In this document: positions 7,738-18,312 of the stretch, piece by piece
Numbering within the stretch: position 1 is the stretch's first letter
Layout: the number at the start of each line of letters is the position of its first letter
Assembly (NCBI RefSeq): GCF_032883915.1
Contig: NZ_CP120717.1
Coordinates: 7,292,001-7,356,000 of the forward strand
Reading direction: 5' to 3'
Length of the DNA stretch: 64,000 bases
Origin: Endozoicomonas sp. 8E
GTDB lineage: Bacteria; Pseudomonadota; Gammaproteobacteria; Pseudomonadales; Endozoicomonadaceae
Translations under genes and position numbers: made by a program
The notes under the pieces: generated by a model
What the model was told of the DNA's origin: nothing
Seen by the model: the letters and a program-made list of their open reading frames with translations, nothing else
Databases searched by the model: none

Positions 7738-8341
7738 AATCTTTAAGTTCTCCATGGTTCAACCTTAACCATTGCAGGGCAACGATAGCCGGAGCGTTGG
7801 AAATACGACCATCTTCAACCATCTGCCAGGCTTCTTCTACTGCCAACACATGCACTCTGATATCTTCACCTTCTTCTGCCAGCCCGTAAACCCCACCTGC
7901 CGATGAGGCATCAACAATGCCACAATAGAGCATGAAACGTTCATTGGTTGCGCCGGGGCTGACGTAAAAATTGGATACCGGCAAAAGATGCTTCACTTCA
8001 CAATCGGCTTCTTCTTTCACTTCACGAATGGCAACCGATTCCAGAGATTCACCCGGCTCGGATATACCCGCAACAATTTCCAGCAACCAGGGGTCATCAT
8101 CGCTCATCAGAGGGCCTATGCGAAACTGTTCGACCAGTACGACTTTTTCCAGAACAGGGTCATAGAGAAGTACACCCACAGAAGGTACTCGCAAAACCGC
8201 TTCCCGAACCAGAGTCTTACTCCACCCCCCCTGAAAAAGGGCATGCCTGACTTTATATCGGCATAGCTTCAGAAATCCAGACCAGACTCGCTCTTCACTT
8301 TCAACATGAGCGTCTTCGACTCCCAGACCAGATAATTTCAT
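7727..8341 (-). CDS. nudF: ADP-ribose pyrophosphatase, Nudix hydrolase
   Basis: Hydrolyses ADP-ribose to AMP and ribose-5-phosphate. The Nudix box is complete: GISEPGESLESVAIREVKEE fits GX5EX7REUXEEXGU. A long N-terminal beta region (RVWSGFLKLCRYKVRH) and SNFYVSPGATNER downstream are typical of NudF/TrgB dimers. Length 204, in the family range. The neighbouring NadD-like gene, nine bases upstream, makes NAD-linked nucleotide salvage a sensible shared theme. The 3' end overlaps the lipoprotein gene by 11 bases. Start ATG at 8341 agrees with the family N-terminus. Confidence 0.93.
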   Translation of the reverse strand: MKLSGLGVEDAHVESEERVWSGFLKLCRYKVRHALFQGGWSKTLVREAVLRVPSVGVLLYDPVLEKVVLVEQFRIGPLMSDDDPWLLEIVAGISEPGESLESVAIREVKEEADCEVKHLLPVSNFYVSPGATNERFMLYCGIVDASSAGGVYGLAEEGEDIRVHVLAVEEAWQMVEDGRISNAPAIVALQWLRLNHGELKDYVQ

Positions 8342-8349
8342 GGCACACC

Positions 8350-8913
8350 TTATTGATATAAATGATGCTGAAGAATGTAATCATGAACCGAAGGCAACAG
8401 CAAAGCAGCCACGGCTTCCTTGTTGTTATCGTCAGAACTCCCTGAAACTAACAGCTCTCTTACCTGAGTGCTCCGAATATTCTGACGTTCCCGGGCAGTA
8501 AAGACCTGCCAGCGTTGTTCAATGTCTTCAGACCGATAGAAGCGTTTCCAGATCCGGGGGTCGGCATTATCGGGCCCTCTGATAAAACCCAGCTGGTCCC
8601 CGGGGTATTTCTGCTCCAGGAGTTCCAGCAAATCAAAGGTATACACCGGCTTTTCGGGATTATCTGCCAGCATTTTCAGCTCAATGTCTGAGACTTCTAT
8701 CTGGCATTGAGGCAGTTGTACCGAGTTCACCAGTTGCTGGCACATGGCCACCCGATGATGAAACGGTAACATCGACTTGGAAAAAGCGTGGGCAGCATTG
8801 GGCACCAGCAATATCAGGTCAAATGCTTGTCGGGCCTGTTCCAATACATCCAGATGCCCCAATGTTGGCGGGTTAAAAGCAGAACCCAAAATTCCTATTT
8901 TTCTGGCGGTCAT
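8350..8913 (-). CDS. Nicotinate/nicotinamide mononucleotide adenylyltransferase-like protein
   Basis: A nucleotidyltransferase of the NadD type: GSAFNPPTLGHLDVL holds the HIGH-like motif (TLGH), and IRSTQVRELL near the end is the (I)SSTxxR motif. It should adenylate NaMN or NMN to form NaAD or NAD. It is short, 187 residues, and lacks the usual gene context of housekeeping nadD (proA, holA), so it may be a paralogue with a narrower role in NAD salvage beside nudF. Its start overlaps the end of the upstream EEP-family gene by four bases (ATGA), which implies coupled translation. Confidence 0.84.
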   Translation of the reverse strand: MTARKIGILGSAFNPPTLGHLDVLEQARQAFDLILLVPNAAHAFSKSMLPFHHRVAMCQQLVNSVQLPQCQIEVSDIELKMLADNPEKPVYTFDLLELLEQKYPGDQLGFIRGPDNADPRIWKRFYRSEDIEQRWQVFTARERQNIRSTQVRELLVSGSSDDNNKEAVAALLLPSVHDYILQHHLYQ

Positions 8914-9782
8914 AATGTTGTTTCCAAAATGACACTCTTTGGCACTTCCACTTCTACTGCGATGGGCAGATGATCTGAAATGGGCAGATTCAGTACACCG
9001 ACCTGATGCACTATCAAGGAGGGACTGACCAGAATATGATCCAGTGAACGACTGGGACGCCAGCTGGGAAAAGTGTTCAGCTCAGAGTGAACAGCCTGCA
9101 AGTCAGTATCTTTCAGGGGTGAGTTGTTTAGCAGTTGTTCAGCGTGGGTATTCATATCGCCCATCAGGATCACATGATTGTAAGTTCTGACCAGATCCCT
9201 GATATAGGAAAGCTGAGTATTTCTGGCCCTCTGGCTGAGAGCCAGATGCATCATCGCCACAACTAAAGGATCCCCGGGGTCACCAAACTGGGCAACGATA
9301 GCTCCCCGTCCGGGGATCAATCCGGGCAGTTTATGATCCTCAAGAATGGTGGGCTTGAATCGGCTCAGCAGTCCGTTACTGTGCTGTGCCAGTTTTCCGA
9401 GATTCCGATTCAACTGGTGATACCAATAGGGAAACTGACATTTCAGGGCGAGGTATTCGGTTTGATTGATAAAGCCACTTCTGAGGCTGCCACCATCGGC
9501 TTCCTGAAGAGCTACCAGATCAAAATCAGGGAGGGCGGCAGCAATCTGATCCAGTGTTCTTGCGCGTCTTGAATGAGGCAACAGATGTTGCCAGCTGCGA
9601 GTCAGATAGTGACGATATTGCTGGGTGTTGATGCCTACCTGGATATTAAAACTCAGTAGACGAATGTGTCCGGGCTTTTGTGATCGGGGGTTATAGACCA
9701 GCTCACTGCAGTGAACGGATCCCGGAGCTCTGTCCCTCTTCAAGCGAGAAGACAAGGCCCCCTTCAAAGCTCTAATCGGCAT
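8910..9782 (-). CDS. Endonuclease/exonuclease/phosphatase-family protein
   Basis: A Mg-dependent hydrolase fold of about 290 residues. Conserved elements: LLSFNIQVG (metal site), LQEADGG, MGDMNTH, RSLDHILV and ISDHLPI (catalytic His). This set fits the EEP superfamily, which covers DNases, sphingomyelinases and phosphodiesterases; the substrate cannot be assigned. A homologue commonly sits beside dsbA and cytochrome c4 in pseudomonads, and that order is kept. No signal peptide is visible; the first 35 residues are basic. Confidence 0.88.
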   Translation of the reverse strand: MPIRALKGALSSRLKRDRAPGSVHCSELVYNPRSQKPGHIRLLSFNIQVGINTQQYRHYLTRSWQHLLPHSRRARTLDQIAAALPDFDLVALQEADGGSLRSGFINQTEYLALKCQFPYWYHQLNRNLGKLAQHSNGLLSRFKPTILEDHKLPGLIPGRGAIVAQFGDPGDPLVVAMMHLALSQRARNTQLSYIRDLVRTYNHVILMGDMNTHAEQLLNNSPLKDTDLQAVHSELNTFPSWRPSRSLDHILVSPSLIVHQVGVLNLPISDHLPIAVEVEVPKSVILETTL

Positions 9783-11906: not shown

Positions 11907-12530
11907 ATGAGTGAAACCAGAACCGGTTTAAATTATCGCAAGGCCAAATTTCTGACCAGCGCCCCCAAGCTGAAACTGTGCCCGCCCGATAATGGCAGGG
12001 AAGTTGCCTTTGCGGGTCGCTCCAATGCAGGTAAGTCCAGTGCGCTGAATACCCTGACAGGCTCAAAAATTGCCCGTACCAGTAAAACTCCCGGACGCAC
12101 CCAACTGATCAACTACTTCAATATTGAAGAGAGCATCCATCTGGTTGACCTTCCCGGTTATGGCTATGCCAAAGTACCGGAAGCTATGAAAATCGAATGG
12201 CAAAAACATCTTGATGATTATTTAACCAACCGGAAATCTCTGGTGGGTCTCGTTCTGCTGGTTGATATCCGCCACCCTCTGAAGGAATTTGACCGAATGA
12301 TGGTCCAGTGGAGCATTGAGTCCAAAATGCCACTGCACATTCTTTTAACCAAGAGTGACAAATTTAAGTCCGGTGTCGCAAAACAGTCCCTGAACAACCT
12401 GAAAAGAGAACTCTCGGAATATCCGCAAATTTCGATACAACTTTTTTCTGCCCTGAAGAAAACCGGTGTTGATCAACTGGCACAGCGTCTGGATACCTGG
12501 TTGCTGTCAGATGAAGAAGAATTGGAATAA
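11907..12530 (+). CDS. engB: Ribosome biogenesis GTPase EngB/YihA
   Basis: Essential GTPase for 50S subunit assembly. G1 [10 protein letters not shown]2 region [10 protein letters not shown]3 [10 protein letters not shown]4 TKSDK and G5 FSALKKTG are all present. Length 207, typical. Start ATG at 11907 follows GACAGG. The gene is convergent with the small RNA array and polA; its last codons overlap the 3' end of the distal predicted small RNA on the other strand. Confidence 0.97.
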
Positions 12531-12642
12531 AAAAAAGCTCCAGCCAACGGGGGAAGATGGCTGAAGCGCTAAGCTCCTTGACAAGGAGAAATTAAATACA
12601 CACAGATTGCAGTGAGAGAAAAGGGAGAGGAATTTCTCTCAC
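12529..12642 (-). ncRNA. Predicted envelope-stress small RNA C (distal unit of array)
   Basis: About 114 nt from a predicted start near 12642 to a T-run at 12536-12529. The 3' end is an intrinsic terminator: stem GCTTCAGCCA / TGGCTGGAGC with loop TCTTCCCCCGT, then eight T. Before it lies a small hairpin CTCCTTG / CAAGGAG. The promoter is a perfect sigma-E consensus. It differs in sequence from units A and B but has the same promoter, C-rich terminator loop and orientation. No open frame with a ribosome binding site is present. The tail overlaps the engB stop codon on the opposite strand. Confidence 0.65.
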
Positions 12643-12648
12643 ATAACT

Positions 12649-12675
12649 TCAGACTGTCAATGCTCCGGTAAGTTC
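12649..12675 (-). promoter_or_regulatory. Sigma-E/AlgU-type promoter of small RNA C
   Basis: Minus strand: GAACTT (12675-12670), 16-base spacer, TCTGA (12653-12649). This equals the RpoE/AlgU consensus. The start is expected about seven bases on, near 12642. Confidence 0.75.
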
Positions 12676-12812
12676 CATCACATCCACAATAACCTGACCA
12701 GATACCTGAAAACAGTTCGCTCACATCGGACTATCGACCCGAACAGAAAAACTCACAGGACAGACTCCAGCTTCCATAAGACACTCGTCCAATGGCTGAC
12801 GCTCTTCGTGGC

Positions 12813-12944
12813 AAAAAAAAACCAGTTACCAAAGGGGGGGGTGGTAACTGGTTTATTGCAGGCTTCGTCGGGGAACACAGCACTGCTTTTATTGCCAACA
12901 CTAAACACACAAGGAGTTTGCAGAAAGGCTTTTCACCTCACTAC
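12813..12944 (-). ncRNA. Predicted envelope-stress small RNA A, ErsA-like position
   Basis: About 132 nt. It shares with unit B a 38-base block starting CTTTCTGCAAACTCCTTGTG and a later GCTGTGTTCCCCGAC segment. It ends in a terminator with an 11-base perfect stem AACCAGTTACC / GGTAACTGGTT, a loop holding eight C, and a nine-base T-run. The interval between engB and polA is where enterobacteria carry Spot 42 (spf) and Pseudomonas carries the AlgU-dependent ErsA, so position, size and promoter class all agree. No protein is encoded. Confidence 0.75.
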
Positions 12945-12950
12945 ACAACA

Positions 12951-12977
12951 TTAGACAACTGAATCTTTAGAAAGTTC
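12951..12977 (-). promoter_or_regulatory. Sigma-E/AlgU-type promoter of small RNA A
   Basis: Minus strand: GGGAACTT with GAACTT at 12977-12972, a 16-base spacer and TCTAA at 12955-12951. One base differs from the consensus -10. The flanking GGG is shared with unit B. Confidence 0.72.
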
Positions 12978-13025
12978 CCGATAGATGAAAATATTTTTGA
13001 TTTTTTTTCTGGCAGATCTTCAGGC

Positions 13026-13153
13026 AAAAAAAACCGGCTACCAAGGGGGGAGGTAACCGGTTCCTCGCAGACTGTGTCGGGGAACACAGCGTTGCTCATA
13101 TTGCCAACACTAAACACACAAGGAGTTTGCAGAAAGACTTTTCGCCTCCCTAC
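13026..13153 (-). ncRNA. Predicted envelope-stress small RNA B (polA-proximal unit)
   Basis: About 128 nt, a tandem paralogue of unit A in the same orientation. A short hairpin CTGTGT / ACACAG exposes TCCCCG in its loop, and the terminator stem (AACCGGTTACC paired with GGTAGCCGGTT) has a loop TCCCCCCTT followed by eight T. Its stem has changed relative to unit A while pairing is kept, which points to selection on structure. No open frame with a ribosome binding site exists. Confidence 0.75.
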
Positions 13154-13159
13154 ATATAC

Positions 13160-13186
13160 TGAGACAATCAAAATTGAAAAAAGTTC
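13160..13186 (-). promoter_or_regulatory. Sigma-E/AlgU-type promoter of small RNA B
   Basis: Minus strand: GAACTT at 13186-13181, a 16-base spacer, TCTCA at 13164-13160. Identical spacing to the other two units. A long palindrome adjoins it upstream. Confidence 0.72.
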
Positions 13187-13189
13187 CCG

Positions 13190-13224
13190 AAGATGTGAAA
13201 AAAATAATATTTTTTTCACATCTT
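13190..13224 (-). terminator. 35-base AT-rich palindrome after polA
   Basis: Two perfect 17-base arms (AAGATGTGAAAAAAATA and its complement) around one base. It lies 36 bases past the polA stop and three bases before the -35 of small RNA B. It may end polA transcription, or act as a binding site upstream of the stress promoter. Confidence 0.5.
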
Positions 13225-13260
13225 CAAATTTTTCAGGGAAACACTACCCTCATTGATGCA

Positions 13261-15999
13261 TCAATGAGCTTCATCCCAGTTGTATCCTGAACCCGCTTCT
13301 ACCAGCAGGGGGACCTTCAGGTCTGCAGCCTGGGACATTTTTTCCACAACACCGGCTTTTACGATCTCCAGCTGATCCTCTGCTACTTCCAGCACCAGCT
13401 CATCGTGGACTTGCATAATCATTCTGGCATCCAGTTCGCTCTCTGAAAGCCACTGATCCACATGAGCCATCGCTCTTTTTATGATATCTGCCGCCGTTCC
13501 CTGCATGGGGGCGTTGATCGCAGTTCGCTCCGCTGCCTGACGACGCATACCATTGCGAGCATTGATTTCGGGAAGGTAGAGCCTGCGTCCAAACAAGGTC
13601 TCAACATACCCTTTTTCTTTGGCAGACTCTCTGGTTCCGTCCATGTAATGAAGCACACCGGGGTAACGATCGAAATAAAGGTTGATGTACTCTTGTGCTG
13701 ACTTTCTGGAAATACCCAACTGTTTAGCCAGTCCGAAAGAAGACATCCCGTAAATTAGACCAAAATTAATCGCCTTGGCACTTCTGCGCTGTTCAGAAGT
13801 GACCCCTGCCAATTCAACACCGAAGACTTCCGCAGCCGTGGCTTTGTGAATATCCAGACCCTGCGCAAAGGCTTCCAACAAACCGGCGTCATCAGAAAGA
13901 TGAGCCATGATTCTCAGCTCTATCTGTGAGTAGTCAGCGGCAATCAATTGATACCCTTCAGGGGCAACAAAGGCCTGGCGAACCTTGCGTCCTTCCTCCG
14001 TTCGAATAGGAATGTTCTGAAGGTTAGGATCAGAGGAGGATAAACGACCCGTTGCTGTCACCGCCTGATGGTAAGACGTGTGAATGCGCCCAGTGGCCGG
14101 ATTGATCATCTGGGGCAGCTTATCGGTGTAAGTCGACTTCAACTTGCTAAGGCCACGATGTTCAATCAGAAGTTTTGGCAGGGGATAATCCAGTGCCAGC
14201 TCCTGAAGCACTTCTTCAGCGGTGGAAGCTTGCCCCTTCGGTGTTTTCTTGATGACCGGCAGACCCAGCTTCTCAAACAGAATCGCCTGCAATTGTTTGG
14301 GAGACGCCAGGTTGAAAGGCTCTCCCGCTTCATCATGAGCCTGCTTTTCAAGCTCATGGAGACGCTTGCCAATCTCCATACTCTGCTGCGCCAGCAGGTG
14401 GCCATTAACTCGGGCTCCCTGCCTTTCCATCCGCGACATAACAGCTACCAGGGGCATTTCTATATCACGAAATACAGAGTACAGAGATGGCTCATGCTCC
14501 AGTTGGGGGGCAATCGTTTCATGCAGTCTCAGGGTAATATCGGCATCTTCAGCCGCGTAGGGCGCCGCTGTTTCAAGATCAATCTGGTTGAAAGTGAGCT
14601 GCTTTTTACCCTTGCCTGCAATCTCTTCAAAAGAGATGCATTGATGGTCGAGGTACTTCTGAGCCAGGCTATCCATATCATGGCGGGTAGCGGTCGAGTT
14701 CAGCACATAGGACTCAAGCATGGTATCCCAATGGATACCTTCCAGACTGATATCATAGTTAGCCAGCACACTTTTATCGTATTTCAGGTTCTGGCCTACT
14801 TTTTTCTTTTCAGGATTCTCCAGTAGCGGTTTCATCTGCTCCAGCACCCAGTTTCTATCCAGCTGAGCGGGTGCGCCAACATAGTCATGTGCTACCGGAA
14901 CGTAGGCGGCCTTACCCGCTTCTACAGCAAAGGAGAGTCCAACCAGTTCCGCTTCCATATAATCCAGACTGGTGGTTTCGGTATCAAAAGAAAACAGTTC
15001 CGAGTCATTCAATATTTTCTGCCAGCGGCCAAAAGTCTCTTTATCGAGAACCGTCTCATATTCAGCGTGTATAGCTGGCTTGGCCGACTCAGTTTCTGTG
15101 CCCCCGTCCATGCCTTTTTCCAGTTCAGCGATCATGGAACGGAATTCATACTCTTTATAAAGAGTCAGCAAAGCATCTTTATCTGCCGGTTCCGCTTTCA
15201 GATCCTCAATCGCAACAGGCAGCTGGACATCGGTTTTGATAGTGGCCAGATCCCGGGAAAGCCGCACAATATCCTTGTGCTCTTCAAACTTGGCAGCGAA
15301 ATTCTTGCTGCCCCTGAAGCCCAGGGCAGGGACTTCATCCAGACGTTTGGCAATCTCGTCAATACTGCCAATCCCCTGTAACAGAGCCAGAGCGGTTTTC
15401 TGCCCAACCCCAGGCATGCCCGGAATATTGTCACTGGAGTCACCCATCAGGGCGAGATAATCAATAATCAGGTGCGCAGGAATACCAAACTTGTCCACAA
15501 CGCCATCCAGATCAGTATGGGTATTGTTCATGGTGTCGATCAAAGTGACATGCTCAGAAACCAATTGGGCGATGTCCTTGTCACCGGTTGAGATGACGGT
15601 AGCAATTTTTTTCTCAGTGGCTTCTCTTGCCAGAGTGCCAATGACATCGTCTGCTTCCACACCCTCAATCATCAACAACGGCATACCCAGGGCTCGAACC
15701 GTTTCGTGAATCGGTTGGACCTGTGAGCGCAGATCGTCCGGCATAGGCTTGCGGGTTGCCTTGTAGTCTTCGTACAGATCATGCCGGAAGTTTTTCCCCT
15801 TGGCATCAAAGACAACCGCTACAGGACTGCCCGGATATTCCTTAAGCAGACTCTTCAGCATGTTCGTCATCACACGGATAGCGCCTGTTGGACGACCGTC
15901 TGATGTTCTCAGGTTCGCTCGTTCTGAAGCATGAAAAGCCCGATAGAGGTAAGAAGACCCATCTACGAGCACAAGGGGCGGATTGGCTTGGTCTGACAT
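13261..15999 (-). CDS. polA: DNA polymerase I
   Basis: Repair and Okazaki-fragment processing polymerase, 912 residues against 928 in E. coli. Three domains: 5' nuclease (residues about 1-300: LVLVDGSSYLYRAFHA, GVEADDVIGTLA, GDSSDNIPGMPGVGQKTA); 3'-5' exonuclease (about 330-520: FSFDTETTSLD with the catalytic Asp/Glu, GQNLKYD, AAEDADITLRL), which looks active; and polymerase (about 530-912: DYSQIELRIMAHLS motif A, RRSAKAINFGLIYG motif B, QVHDELVLE motif C). The ATG at 15999 gives the usual N-terminus. The three small RNA units follow it on the same strand. Confidence 0.98.
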   Translation of the reverse strand: MSDQANPPLVLVDGSSYLYRAFHASERANLRTSDGRPTGAIRVMTNMLKSLLKEYPGSPVAVVFDAKGKNFRHDLYEDYKATRKPMPDDLRSQVQPIHETVRALGMPLLMIEGVEADDVIGTLAREATEKKIATVISTGDKDIAQLVSEHVTLIDTMNNTHTDLDGVVDKFGIPAHLIIDYLALMGDSSDNIPGMPGVGQKTALALLQGIGSIDEIAKRLDEVPALGFRGSKNFAAKFEEHKDIVRLSRDLATIKTDVQLPVAIEDLKAEPADKDALLTLYKEYEFRSMIAELEKGMDGGTETESAKPAIHAEYETVLDKETFGRWQKILNDSELFSFDTETTSLDYMEAELVGLSFAVEAGKAAYVPVAHDYVGAPAQLDRNWVLEQMKPLLENPEKKKVGQNLKYDKSVLANYDISLEGIHWDTMLESYVLNSTATRHDMDSLAQKYLDHQCISFEEIAGKGKKQLTFNQIDLETAAPYAAEDADITLRLHETIAPQLEHEPSLYSVFRDIEMPLVAVMSRMERQGARVNGHLLAQQSMEIGKRLHELEKQAHDEAGEPFNLASPKQLQAILFEKLGLPVIKKTPKGQASTAEEVLQELALDYPLPKLLIEHRGLSKLKSTYTDKLPQMINPATGRIHTSYHQAVTATGRLSSSDPNLQNIPIRTEEGRKVRQAFVAPEGYQLIAADYSQIELRIMAHLSDDAGLLEAFAQGLDIHKATAAEVFGVELAGVTSEQRRSAKAINFGLIYGMSSFGLAKQLGISRKSAQEYINLYFDRYPGVLHYMDGTRESAKEKGYVETLFGRRLYLPEINARNGMRRQAAERTAINAPMQGTAADIIKRAMAHVDQWLSESELDARMIMQVHDELVLEVAEDQLEIVKAGVVEKMSQAADLKVPLLVEAGSGYNWDEAH

Positions 16000-16719: not shown

Positions 16720-18312
16720 TTGCAAGCTGTAAAAAAATTCTTGCTGATTTGGATCGCAACCTTCAGCAAATTCAGCTCAAATTGTTACAGCATGGACGAA
16801 TGTCTTGCTTTTTTTATGGCGCACGGCAAAACACTTATGACCACCCAACAACTTCCTGTTGAGGTCACATCCACACAGGCTATATACCTCACAGAAGGTC
16901 GTGCCCTACCATTCCCTGACACACAATGCATGTACACGGAAATCGAAGGGGAACAGGTCTGTTTCGGGAACAGGACTCCTGCCAGGGTCGGGCTCCAGCC
17001 CGGCAAAAACATGAAGCTCGGACTATCTCCCCAGAGTATTTCACAACTAAGATACAATGCATCACTCCCGCCGCAGACTCCTTTAACTCCAACCGGGCCG
17101 CCTCTACTCCCTGAGTTTGACTCGGGAAGTGGAGCTGTCGCCACAGAAATAAAGAAAGGTGTTAATCGACATGATGAAATCACCGAAGCCGCCAAACAGA
17201 GCAGTCAACTATGCTTATTTCGCTACCCGGGGGAAGATAAGGATGGATTGATAAGTGACGATAAACAGGAGGAGGATGAAGTCATCGAGTGGTATGTCTT
17301 AGAAGAAAACGAGAACGAACCTGATGACTCCAATGAAGCAAAAATTCAATATGAAGAGTCGCTCCACGAGGGGACTCCCTTAAAGCCTGATACCCGTTAC
17401 TGCATACTCCGTCACTTCCATAATGAAAGCCGAATAAGCAAAGCCTGCCCTGATGGAGAAGGAGCCACAGGCGGTGAAGGCCAGTCAACTACCGAAAATA
17501 CCAGAAATCAGGAAAATGGGAATGAAGACGCCAGCGAAGAGACATCAGAAAACATGGATGAAGAAAACCAGCATGAGACTATAGAGGCTTGCTCAACCTG
17601 TGGTGGATCGTTTTGTGAGCACGCCGAATTCTACTTTGATATCCCCATAAAAAAGGATGCCCCCAAAGCCGCCTCGAAAAAAGCAAAGCGCTATGCCTGC
17701 ACCGATCCAAAATGTAATCTCCGGTTCACTTCCACTTCCAACCGAAATATTCACGTTCGCAGGAAGCATACCAGGGAAAGGCCCTACGCCTGCACCGATT
17801 CAAAGTGCGATCGCCGGTTCGCCGCCAATTCCGACCGTGATGCCCACGTTAGCAGGAAGCATAATGGGGATAAGCCCCATGCCTGCAAAGCTCAGGACTG
17901 TATTCGCCGGTTCGCTACTACTTCTGACCGTGATAGCCACATTCGCAGAGAGCATACCGGGGAAAGGCCCTATGCCTGCACCGATCCGAAATGTGACCTC
18001 CGGTTTCCTTCCATTTCCAACCGTAATGTTCACGTTCGCAGGCATCATACCGGGGAAAAGCCTCATGCCTGCACCGATTCAGAGTGTGATCGCCGGTTCG
18101 CCGTCAGTTCCGATCGTGATACCCATGTTCGAAGGAAGCATGACGGGGAAAAAAACTATATCTGTGCCGATCCAAAGTGTAATCGCCGGTTCTTTTCCAA
18201 ATTCGAGCGTAACGGGCACTTTACCAGGATGCATAACAGCGAGCCAAAACCGAAACGCCAGAGAATTGAAGGTGAACTATTCGCCCCTGAAGGAGCCAAC
18301 TTAAAAGACTGA
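16720..18312 (+). CDS. Eukaryote-like six C2H2 zinc-finger protein, putatively exported
   Basis: 530 residues. The TTG start at 16720 follows AAAGGAAA and yields a signal-like hydrophobic N-terminus (VKKFLLIWIATFSKFSSN). Residues 30-320 are low in homology, acidic in the second half (TENTRNQENGNEDASEETSE), with a CSTCGGSFCEH motif near 290. Residues 325-510 are six tandem 31-residue C2H2 fingers of the form C-X4-C-X12-H-X4-H, joined by T(G/R)E(K/R)P linkers exactly like GLI/ZIC/TFIIIA fingers. Every finger keeps both Cys and both His. A basic PKPKRQRIE near the end resembles a nuclear localisation signal. Such arrays are rare in bacteria; a DNA-binding effector for a eukaryotic host is the natural inference, not shown. 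Confidence 0.85.
   Translation: MQAVKKFLLIWIATFSKFSSNCYSMDECLAFFMAHGKTLMTTQQLPVEVTSTQAIYLTEGRALPFPDTQCMYTEIEGEQVCFGNRTPARVGLQPGKNMKLGLSPQSISQLRYNASLPPQTPLTPTGPPLLPEFDSGSGAVATEIKKGVNRHDEITEAAKQSSQLCLFRYPGEDKDGLISDDKQEEDEVIEWYVLEENENEPDDSNEAKIQYEESLHEGTPLKPDTRYCILRHFHNESRISKACPDGEGATGGEGQSTTENTRNQENGNEDASEETSENMDEENQHETIEACSTCGGSFCEHAEFYFDIPIKKDAPKAASKKAKRYACTDPKCNLRFTSTSNRNIHVRRKHTRERPYACTDSKCDRRFAANSDRDAHVSRKHNGDKPHACKAQDCIRRFATTSDRDSHIRREHTGERPYACTDPKCDLRFPSISNRNVHVRRHHTGEKPHACTDSECDRRFAVSSDRDTHVRRKHDGEKNYICADPKCNRRFFSKFERNGHFTRMHNSEPKPKRQRIEGELFAPEGANLKD
17692..18249 (+). repeat. Six 93-bp tandem repeats encoding C2H2 fingers
   Basis: Six in-register 93-base units, each one finger plus linker. 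Units 2, 3 and 5 share the GATCGCCGGTTCGCC-like phrase, while units 1 and 4 share CTCCGGTTT/CTCCGGTTC, so the array looks grown by duplication of a pair. Residues in the DNA-reading helix (for example TSTSNRNIH, AANSDRDAH, ATTSDRDSH) alternate between an SNRN and an SDRD type. Confidence 0.85.

What the first reader, a model, noticed from the sequence alone, without database searches (positions are those of the whole stretch)
12529..13186. Array of three small RNA units, each with a sigma-E/AlgU promoter, between engB and polA
Three minus-strand units share the same design. The promoter is GAACTT, exactly 16 bases, then TCTGA, TCTAA or TCTCA. The body is 114-132 nt without an open frame, and the end is an intrinsic terminator with five to eight C in its loop. 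Units A and B are paralogues with a 38-base identical block; their terminator stems have changed while still pairing. This interval holds Spot 42 in enterobacteria and the AlgU-dependent ErsA in Pseudomonas, where one RNA is described as far as I know. A triple array suggests a stress-regulated small RNA family with related but separate targets. C-rich loops could pair with G-rich ribosome binding sites.
Basis: partly seen in the sequence, partly recalled or inferred. Interest (0 to 1): 0.88.

Follow-up and report, generated by a model that had tools for sequence, protein, structure and literature searches.

The report
Tandem ErsA-type envelope-stress RNA genes
Downstream of polA, this marine bacterium appears to carry a row of three related small-RNA genes with envelope-stress promoters, two of them good relatives of the Pseudomonas RNA ErsA; in related bacteria the matching RNAs look able to pair with the start of the mRNA of an outer-membrane porin.

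Summary
Three minus-strand units lie between polA and engB, each with GGAACTT-N16-TCTNA (the only exact matches in 64 kb; 0.05 expected) and a terminator hairpin with a C-rich loop. The genome encodes an RpoE/AlgU-type sigma beside an RseA_N protein; that sigma gene's own promoter has the same -35 and spacing. Units A and B are homologues of Pseudomonas ErsA (RF01719, E 6e-5 and 3e-6, below Rfam's cut-off) with its layout. Units occur beside polA or engB in 31 of 37 family genomes, two or more in 19. The conserved 25-nt core, not the C-rich loops, is the likely seed. It pairs over the ribosome-binding site of a general porin: 23 of 25 leaders beat the 5th percentile of background, but the two that fail are the window genome's own. 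Transcription, AlgU and Hfq dependence, and regulation are untested.

The parts
13160..13187 (-). Unit A sigma-E/AlgU-type promoter GGAACTT-N16-TCTCA
   Evidence: same -35 and spacing upstream of the genome's own rpoE/algU gene
13026..13154 (-). Unit A small RNA (ErsA homologue), predicted start near 13154
   Evidence: RF01719 34.8 bits, E 6.1e-5; fold z -4.86
13128..13154 (-). Unit A 5' hairpin (SL1)
13102..13126 (-). Unit A conserved core ACTCCTTGTGTGTTTAGTGTTGGCA (domain II, predicted seed)
   Evidence: nearly invariant in the 26-unit alignment
13067..13095 (-). Unit A central hairpin with UUCCCC loop (SL2)
13026..13060 (-). Unit A intrinsic terminator, C-rich loop (SL3)
12951..12978 (-). 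Unit B promoter GGAACTT-N16-TCTAA
12813..12945 (-). Unit B small RNA (ErsA homologue)
   Evidence: RF01719 40.1 bits, E 3.2e-6; fold z -5.46
12919..12945 (-). Unit B 5' hairpin (SL1)
12893..12917 (-). Unit B conserved core, identical to unit A
12858..12886 (-). Unit B central hairpin (SL2)
12813..12851 (-). Unit B terminator, C-rich loop
12649..12676 (-). Unit C promoter GGAACTT-N16-TCTGA
12530..12643 (-). Unit C small RNA, probable third ErsA paralogue with eroded core
   Evidence: R2 model built without the window 47.9 bits (best non-unit match 24.3 bits); R1 15 bits, E 8.6e-4; fold z -4.54
12612..12642 (-). Unit C 5' hairpin
12574..12588 (-). Unit C small CTCC...GGAG hairpin
12529..12567 (-). 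Unit C terminator (loop with CCCCC), overlapping the engB stop codon
13189..13225 (.). 17-pair AT-rich inverted repeat between the polA stop and promoter A; possible polA terminator and AT-rich upstream element
   Evidence: 30-nt tracts upstream of the -35 in 60 units average 76% AT against 51% for the window

Best explanation
The array is a tandem expansion of the ErsA family of envelope-stress small RNAs. Shown from sequence: three units with sigma-E/AlgU-type promoters; A and B homologous to ErsA; C most likely a third paralogue whose core has eroded; units beside polA or engB across the family. Inferred: when RpoE/AlgU is released from its RseA/MucA-type anti-sigma factor, A and B are transcribed from separate promoters to their own terminators. 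Their core then pairs with mRNAs over the ribosome-binding site, above all the mRNA of a general porin, and lowers its translation, so that fewer porins enter a stressed envelope. A and B share one core and so probably act as a double dose on the same targets. C keeps promoter and terminator but not the core, so it is decaying or has acquired other targets.
For: RF01719 hits to A and B at E 6e-5 and 3e-6, the two best of 31 listed matches over 4227 families; RF01719 over cut-off for C-position units of G004 and G009, and for G054; R2, built without the window, gives C 47.9 bits. Promoter triplet 0.05 expected; RpoE over the NCBIfam cut-off, the only one of four sigma matches to pass it, RseA_N neighbour, same -35 and spacing upstream of that sigma gene. 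In 60 collected units the spacer is 16 in 52 and 17 in 8 (a promoter match was required for collection). Covariation: 11 of 12 pairs with changes on both sides, 0 of 500 shuffles as high (structure predicted from the same alignment, related rows). Position: 31 of 37 family genomes. Core more unpaired than both flanks in 51 of 60 units. Porin leaders: native mean -25.1 kcal/mol against a background mean of -15.6; 23 of 25 under the 5th and 17 of 25 under the 1st percentile of 308. Native core best in 3 of 5 genome groups, most clearly G020/G026 (-25.6 against -19.9 to -22.5). ErsA layout, sigma-22 dependence and oprD repression: PMC8575079, PMC8395346, PMC7565897 (passages).
Against: No RNA data. 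A and B score below Rfam's cut-off (34.8 and 40.1 against 50) and C is not listed for that family. R2 gives E 5e-6 to a non-unit AT-rich hairpin, so its E-values overstate. The two porin leaders that fail the 5th percentile are both from the window's own genome: -21.4, rank 22 of 559 leaders, and -19.0, rank 63 of 559. Over those 559 leaders the core has 8 sites at -24 or better and the reversed core 6, so there is no general enrichment. A pattern requiring exact core complement at a Shine-Dalgarno site found 7 sites in 10 genomes against 4 for its control. Porin leaders are related, so the 25 are not independent; the background came from one genome and its two cores, while native values take the best of one to four cores. 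In groups g6 and g7 a foreign core pairs better than the native one, and in the six genus-g7 genomes with a first and a second unit the second unit's core is no better than shuffles (12 to 67 of 100 as good). The porin was found in 22 of 37 family genomes, not in G001, G008 and five of six of genus g5. Two found leaders (G023, no unit of its own; G057, start not located) paired no better than shuffles (70 and 90 of 100) and were left out of the 25. In unit A the core is only 0.37 unpaired, against 0.36 for its 3' part. hfq was not looked for.
Confidence: 0.72

Rival explanations
1. Sigma-E-driven ErsA paralogues whose main targets here are not porins, for example respiration, as reported for ErsA with Anr; the porin complementarity is incidental A/C-rich leader sequence.
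For: The strongest predicted site among 559 sampled leaders of the window genome is at ccoP (TIGR00782, 283 bits): -35.5 kcal/mol, z -5.9, 0 of 1000 shuffled cores as good. The window genome's porins rank only 22 and 63. ErsA acts on anr and anaerobic metabolism in P. aeruginosa (PMC8575079, passages).
Against: The ccoP site was seen in one genome only and could not be checked in relatives; the porin site lies within -39 to -4 in all 12 genus leaders although sequences differ.
Confidence: 0.3
2. Spot 42 (spf) relatives: same interval, carbon-metabolism RNA.
For: Same polA-engB interval; a review calls ErsA a functional orthologue of Spot 42 (PMC8395346, passage); RF00021 matches unit C weakly (18.6 bits).
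Against: 18.6 bits against a cut-off of 80, E 0.69; sigma-E-type promoters; RF01719 matches A and B far better.
Confidence: 0.03
3. A palindromic repeat element or terminator cluster without transcripts of its own.
For: Inverted repeats and T-runs; copy number varies between genomes.
Against: Nearly invariant core, conserved sigma-E-type promoters and position next to polA or engB.
Confidence: 0.04
4. Unit C is a dying pseudogene rather than a functional RNA.
For: Core eroded in the window; in G003 only the 3' part without the promoter remains, and G002 lacks the unit (read by eye).
Against: Window C keeps an exact promoter, a strong 5' hairpin and a terminator.
Confidence: 0.45

Closest known systems
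ErsA (Rfam RF01719 Pseudomon-1/ErsA), Pseudomonas
   Same: polA-engB position, sigma-E/AlgU-type promoter, similar length (Rfam model 116 positions), three stem-loops with an unstructured U-rich domain II, C-rich terminator loop, core stretch shared with the Rfam consensus (CUCCU, GUGUU, AGUGUUGGCA)
   Different: Two to four copies in 19 of 37 family genomes instead of one; one copy here with an eroded core; below Rfam's cut-off; predicted main target a general porin
Spot 42 (RF00021)
   Same: Genomic interval after polA
   Different: No significant sequence or structure match; different promoter type (recalled)
OmrA/OmrB and other sibling small RNAs (PMC4211561, passages)
   Same: Tandem near-duplicate small RNAs with shared stretches; OmrA/B act on outer-membrane protein mRNAs
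   Different: Controlled by EnvZ/OmpR, two copies, unrelated sequence (sequence relation not tested here)
MicA, RybB (sigma-E porin repressors of enterobacteria; recalled)
   Same: Sigma-E-driven small RNAs that repress porin translation
   Different: RybB model matches unit C only at chance level, 18.9 bits against 40; MicA not among the 31 listed matches

Membership tests
ErsA (RF01719) | Covariance-model score at or above Rfam gathering (50 bits) | tested here: not met
   A 34.8, B 40.1, C not listed; C-position units in G004 (52.9) and G009 (50.6) pass. So called a homologue / extended family, not a formal RF01719 member
ErsA (RF01719) | Gene in the polA-engB interval | tested here: met
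ErsA (RF01719) | Sigma-22 (AlgU) -35/-10 promoter | tested here: met
   Sequence only:
ErsA (RF01719) | Three stem-loops with unstructured U-rich domain II between SL1 and SL2 | tested here: met
   A and B: (core of A only 0.37 unpaired); unit C: core largely lost
ErsA (RF01719) | Expression dependent on AlgU; Hfq-assisted repression of targets | not testable with these tools
   Needs RNA and mutants; hfq gene not searched
ErsA (RF01719) | Known targets algC, amrZ, oprD, anr | tested here: inconclusive
   Leaders of a general porin (a functional counterpart of oprD, by inference) pair in relatives, weakly in the window genome; algC, amrZ and anr not examined
Spot 42 (RF00021) | Score above gathering (80 bits) | tested here: not met
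   18.6 bits, unit C only

The most novel reading that the evidence does not exclude
In this family ErsA became a multi-copy, dosage-type envelope-stress switch for a general porin, with core and porin leader changing together between genera, and the third copy in this genome has been recruited to new targets: its changed core pairs best with the initiation region of a paralogous family of secreted-looking proteins that seem to start at AUU codons (7 of the 8 best of 559 leaders, up to -26.7 kcal/mol, but these share one leader and the reversed core reaches -23.3).
Probability: 0.1. Interest if true: 0.65.

Novelty: new variant of a known kind. Interest (0 to 1): 0.5.

Why it matters
ErsA is studied as a regulator of Pseudomonas biofilm and envelope stress. 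Finding it as tandem arrays in Endozoicomonas and relatives, with copies gained and lost in a countable way and a predicted porin target in leaders of four genera, gives a natural series for asking why bacteria multiply small RNAs and how RNA and target change together. It also shows that Rfam's present ErsA cut-off misses most of these units: 3 of 57 genomes pass it, 26 match at E <= 1, and 33 match the model built here at E <= 0.1.

Tried and rejected
Shine-Dalgarno-anchored target pattern: 7 sites against 4 control sites in 10 genomes. Near-exact core complement with up to 3 mismatches: 30 sites, control 0; 24 lie in the arrays, the others are one porin leader (G003), four gene-cassette leaders of one type (G004, G007) and G001 contig C90, which looks like a core-bearing relative and was not pursued. 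Spot 42, RybB and the other Rfam matches beyond RF01719: E 0.098 or worse, taken as chance. Small protein: frame not conserved in the five relatives examined. C-rich loop as main seed: rejected because loop length and sequence vary while the core does not. Weak R1 hits away from polA/engB: of four inspected, one (G028) is an unrelated inverted repeat, one (G003) not a unit, and two (G025, G027) are core-bearing units with sigma-E-like promoters, not counted in the 60; the rest were not inspected. One search's search missed copies and one search's printed error counts are not minimal; only one search's unit list was used, and contig ends make it a lower bound. One search read minus-strand porin loci in the wrong orientation and is superseded. 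One search timed out with no output and was rerun with fewer shuffles. G023 and G057 leaders were dropped from the 25. Literature: the listings, and passages of PMC8085936, showed no report of multi-copy ErsA or of an Endozoicomonas small RNA; and one search list only 15 of 9,361 and 12 of 5,198 papers, and most subscription papers are not in that library.

Full report
1. What is there. Between polA (minus, 13261-15999) and engB (plus, 11907-12530), two convergent genes, three units lie head to tail on the minus strand. Each begins with GGAACTT-N16-TCTNA. These are the only exact matches in the window, with 0.05 expected from shuffles; with one mismatch and a shorter -35 the pattern is at chance. 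The units fold better than 200 of 200 shuffles. A 92-codon GTG frame crosses unit A, but the five relatives examined have stops in all three forward frames there.

2. The sigma factor. The genome (G000, one contig of 7.38 Mb) has one RpoE-type sigma over the NCBIfam cut-off (306 bits against 236; three weaker matches do not pass). It is followed by a protein with the RseA N-terminal domain. The promoter upstream of this sigma gene reads GGAACTT-N16-TCTAT: same -35 and spacing, slightly different -10. This is sequence evidence only. The genus is inferred to be Endozoicomonas: contigs of G003 and G008 equal in length records of Endozoicomonas sp. ISHI1 and OPT23 that hold the same engB (94% and 83% alike to the window's). 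The family name Endozoicomonadaceae is recalled.

3. Homology to ErsA. At Rfam's gathering thresholds nothing in the window matches. With E-values, the two best of 31 listed matches are RF01719 Pseudomon-1/ErsA on unit B (40.1 bits, E 3.2e-6) and unit A (34.8, 6.1e-5); cut-off 50. In 57 relatives 26 have a match at E <= 1 and three pass the cut-off: G054, and the C-position units of G004 and G009. Published ErsA has stem-loops SL1-SL3 with an unstructured U-rich domain II of 34 nt (PMC8575079, passages); A and B have that layout.

4. Unit C. With a model built from 26 units (A1/R1, window A and B included, C not), C scores 15 bits, E 8.6e-4, over 1801 bases. With a model built from six C-position units of other genomes (R2, window excluded), C scores 47.9 bits; A and B score 51.1 each, and the best non-unit match is the AT-rich hairpin at 24.3 bits. 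R2 gives that hairpin E 5e-6, so its E-values (6e-12 for C) overstate; the margin in bits is the better guide, and part of it is hairpin. Most of the core is missing in C's alignment. In G003 the C position lacks the promoter and 5' half and in G002 it is gone (by eye); in G001, G004, G006, G007, G008 and G009 the first half of the core is intact. C is thus most likely an ErsA paralogue in decline or in divergence.

5. Distribution. From polA and engB flanks I collected 60 units with promoter, core and T-run in 33 genomes: 31 of the 37 family genomes searched, 19 of them with two or more; six have none. Window unit C is not among the 60; contig ends make these lower bounds. In 292 genomes of the order, R1 finds 28 with E <= 0.001, nine in the family and 19 in three other families; the 19 each show a single match (strict filters, 11 candidates scored per genome, so extra copies may be missed). 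In genus g7, where both genes lie on one contig, polA and engB are 22 kb or more apart and the units are with polA; in G010 two units are with polA and the C-like unit is 118 kb away beside engB.

6. Conservation pattern. In the 26-unit alignment the core is nearly invariant. The central hairpin and terminator vary but pair: 11 of 12 pairs have changes on both sides, 40 such cells against 10.2 in shuffles, 0 of 500 as high; slid structures reach 16-41% of cells paired against 92%. The structure was predicted from the same alignment. The 3' part of unit B groups by position (window B 97% with G003 B, 90% with G002 B, 79% with window A); for unit A this is hardly visible (80-81% against 79%). 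The 5' hairpins of window A and B are 91% alike, more than to any copy in G003, G002 or G005 (79-88%), while their promoters are only 71% alike. This is a hint, no more, of partial gene conversion. Promoter spacers are 16 in 52 and 17 in 8 of 60; the 30 nt upstream of the -35 average 76% AT against 51% for the window. A promoter match was required for collection, so these counts describe, they do not test.

7. Probable target. A near-exact complement of the core was sought in 10 genus genomes: outside sRNA-like sequence it gave one porin leader (G003) and four leaders of one gene-cassette type. The porin (PF13609/PF00267) was found in 8 of 10 genus genomes and 22 of 37 family genomes. In all 12 genus leaders the best duplex lies within -39 to -4 of the start of the match, in most in two blocks, one on GGAGU and one on an ACACAAC-like stretch. 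Shuffled cores as good: 0 to 9 of 300 in ten leaders, 22 and 34 of 300 in G000b and G005b. With native cores, 25 porin leaders average -25.1 kcal/mol; 23 lie under the 5th percentile (-21.5) and 17 under the 1st of 308 background leaders. The two that fail are the window genome's own, which rank 22nd and 63rd of 559 sampled leaders. The native core is the best of five groups of cores for g1, g5 (one leader) and G020/G026, not for g6 and g7. In the six g7 genomes with two units the first unit's core pairs well (0-3 of 100 shuffles as good) and the second's does not (12-67 of 100), so copies there seem to have parted. G023 and G057 showed nothing; G001 and G008 have units but no such porin at the cut-off. 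Over 559 leaders the core has 8 sites at -24 or better, the reversed core 6. The best of the 559 is ccoP (TIGR00782), -35.5 kcal/mol, z -5.9, with 0 of 1000 shuffled cores as good, seen in one genome only.

8. Mechanism. Most likely: envelope stress frees RpoE; A and B are made; their core covers the ribosome-binding site of porin (and perhaps ccoP) mRNA. Shown: promoter motifs, homology, structure, complementarity. Inferred: transcription, sigma dependence, Hfq, repression. In P. aeruginosa ErsA represses oprD (a porin) and, with Hfq, algC (PMC8395346, passages), while its effect on amrZ is reported as Hfq-independent (PMC5819304, passages).

9. Novelty. ErsA and sibling small RNAs are known (PMC4211561, passages). 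The listings showed no report of ErsA arrays or of Endozoicomonas small RNAs. I rate it a new variant of a known kind.

Noticed in passing
L248, L249, L255, L268 (stretches of the window's own genome): Thirteen paralogous genes with signal-peptide-like starts (by eye) share the leader A(A/G)GGATAGAATT(A/G)TTAAACAC; in 11 of 13 no ATG/GTG/TTG lies between the upstream in-frame stop and the signal peptide (one shows a GTG, one was cut in the printout), so a whole gene family may start at AUU codons. One copy has weak C2H2 zinc-finger matches.
   Followed up: partly
window 16720-18312 (+): A 530-codon ORF with several C2H2 zinc-finger-like repeats, unusual for a bacterium (by eye; no family search).
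   Followed up: no
window 13189-13225: A 17-pair inverted repeat of almost only A and T between the polA stop and promoter A; possibly polA's terminator and an upstream promoter element.
   Followed up: partly
L062 1774-2898 (G003): A TnpB gene (NCBIfam guided_TnpB, 369.7 bits) sits between the unit C remnant and engB.
   Followed up: partly
L195-L198 (G004, G007): Gene cassettes with attC-like ends (by eye) share a leader complementary to the ErsA core upstream of the start codon.
   Followed up: no
L138 (G027), L139 (G025): Core-bearing units with sigma-E-like promoters away from polA and engB, so the family also spreads to other sites.
   Followed up: partly
L239 minus strand, leader of ccoP (8073-8990): The core pairs over about 23 nt just upstream of ccoP (cbb3 oxidase), the best of 559 sampled leaders.
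   Followed up: partly
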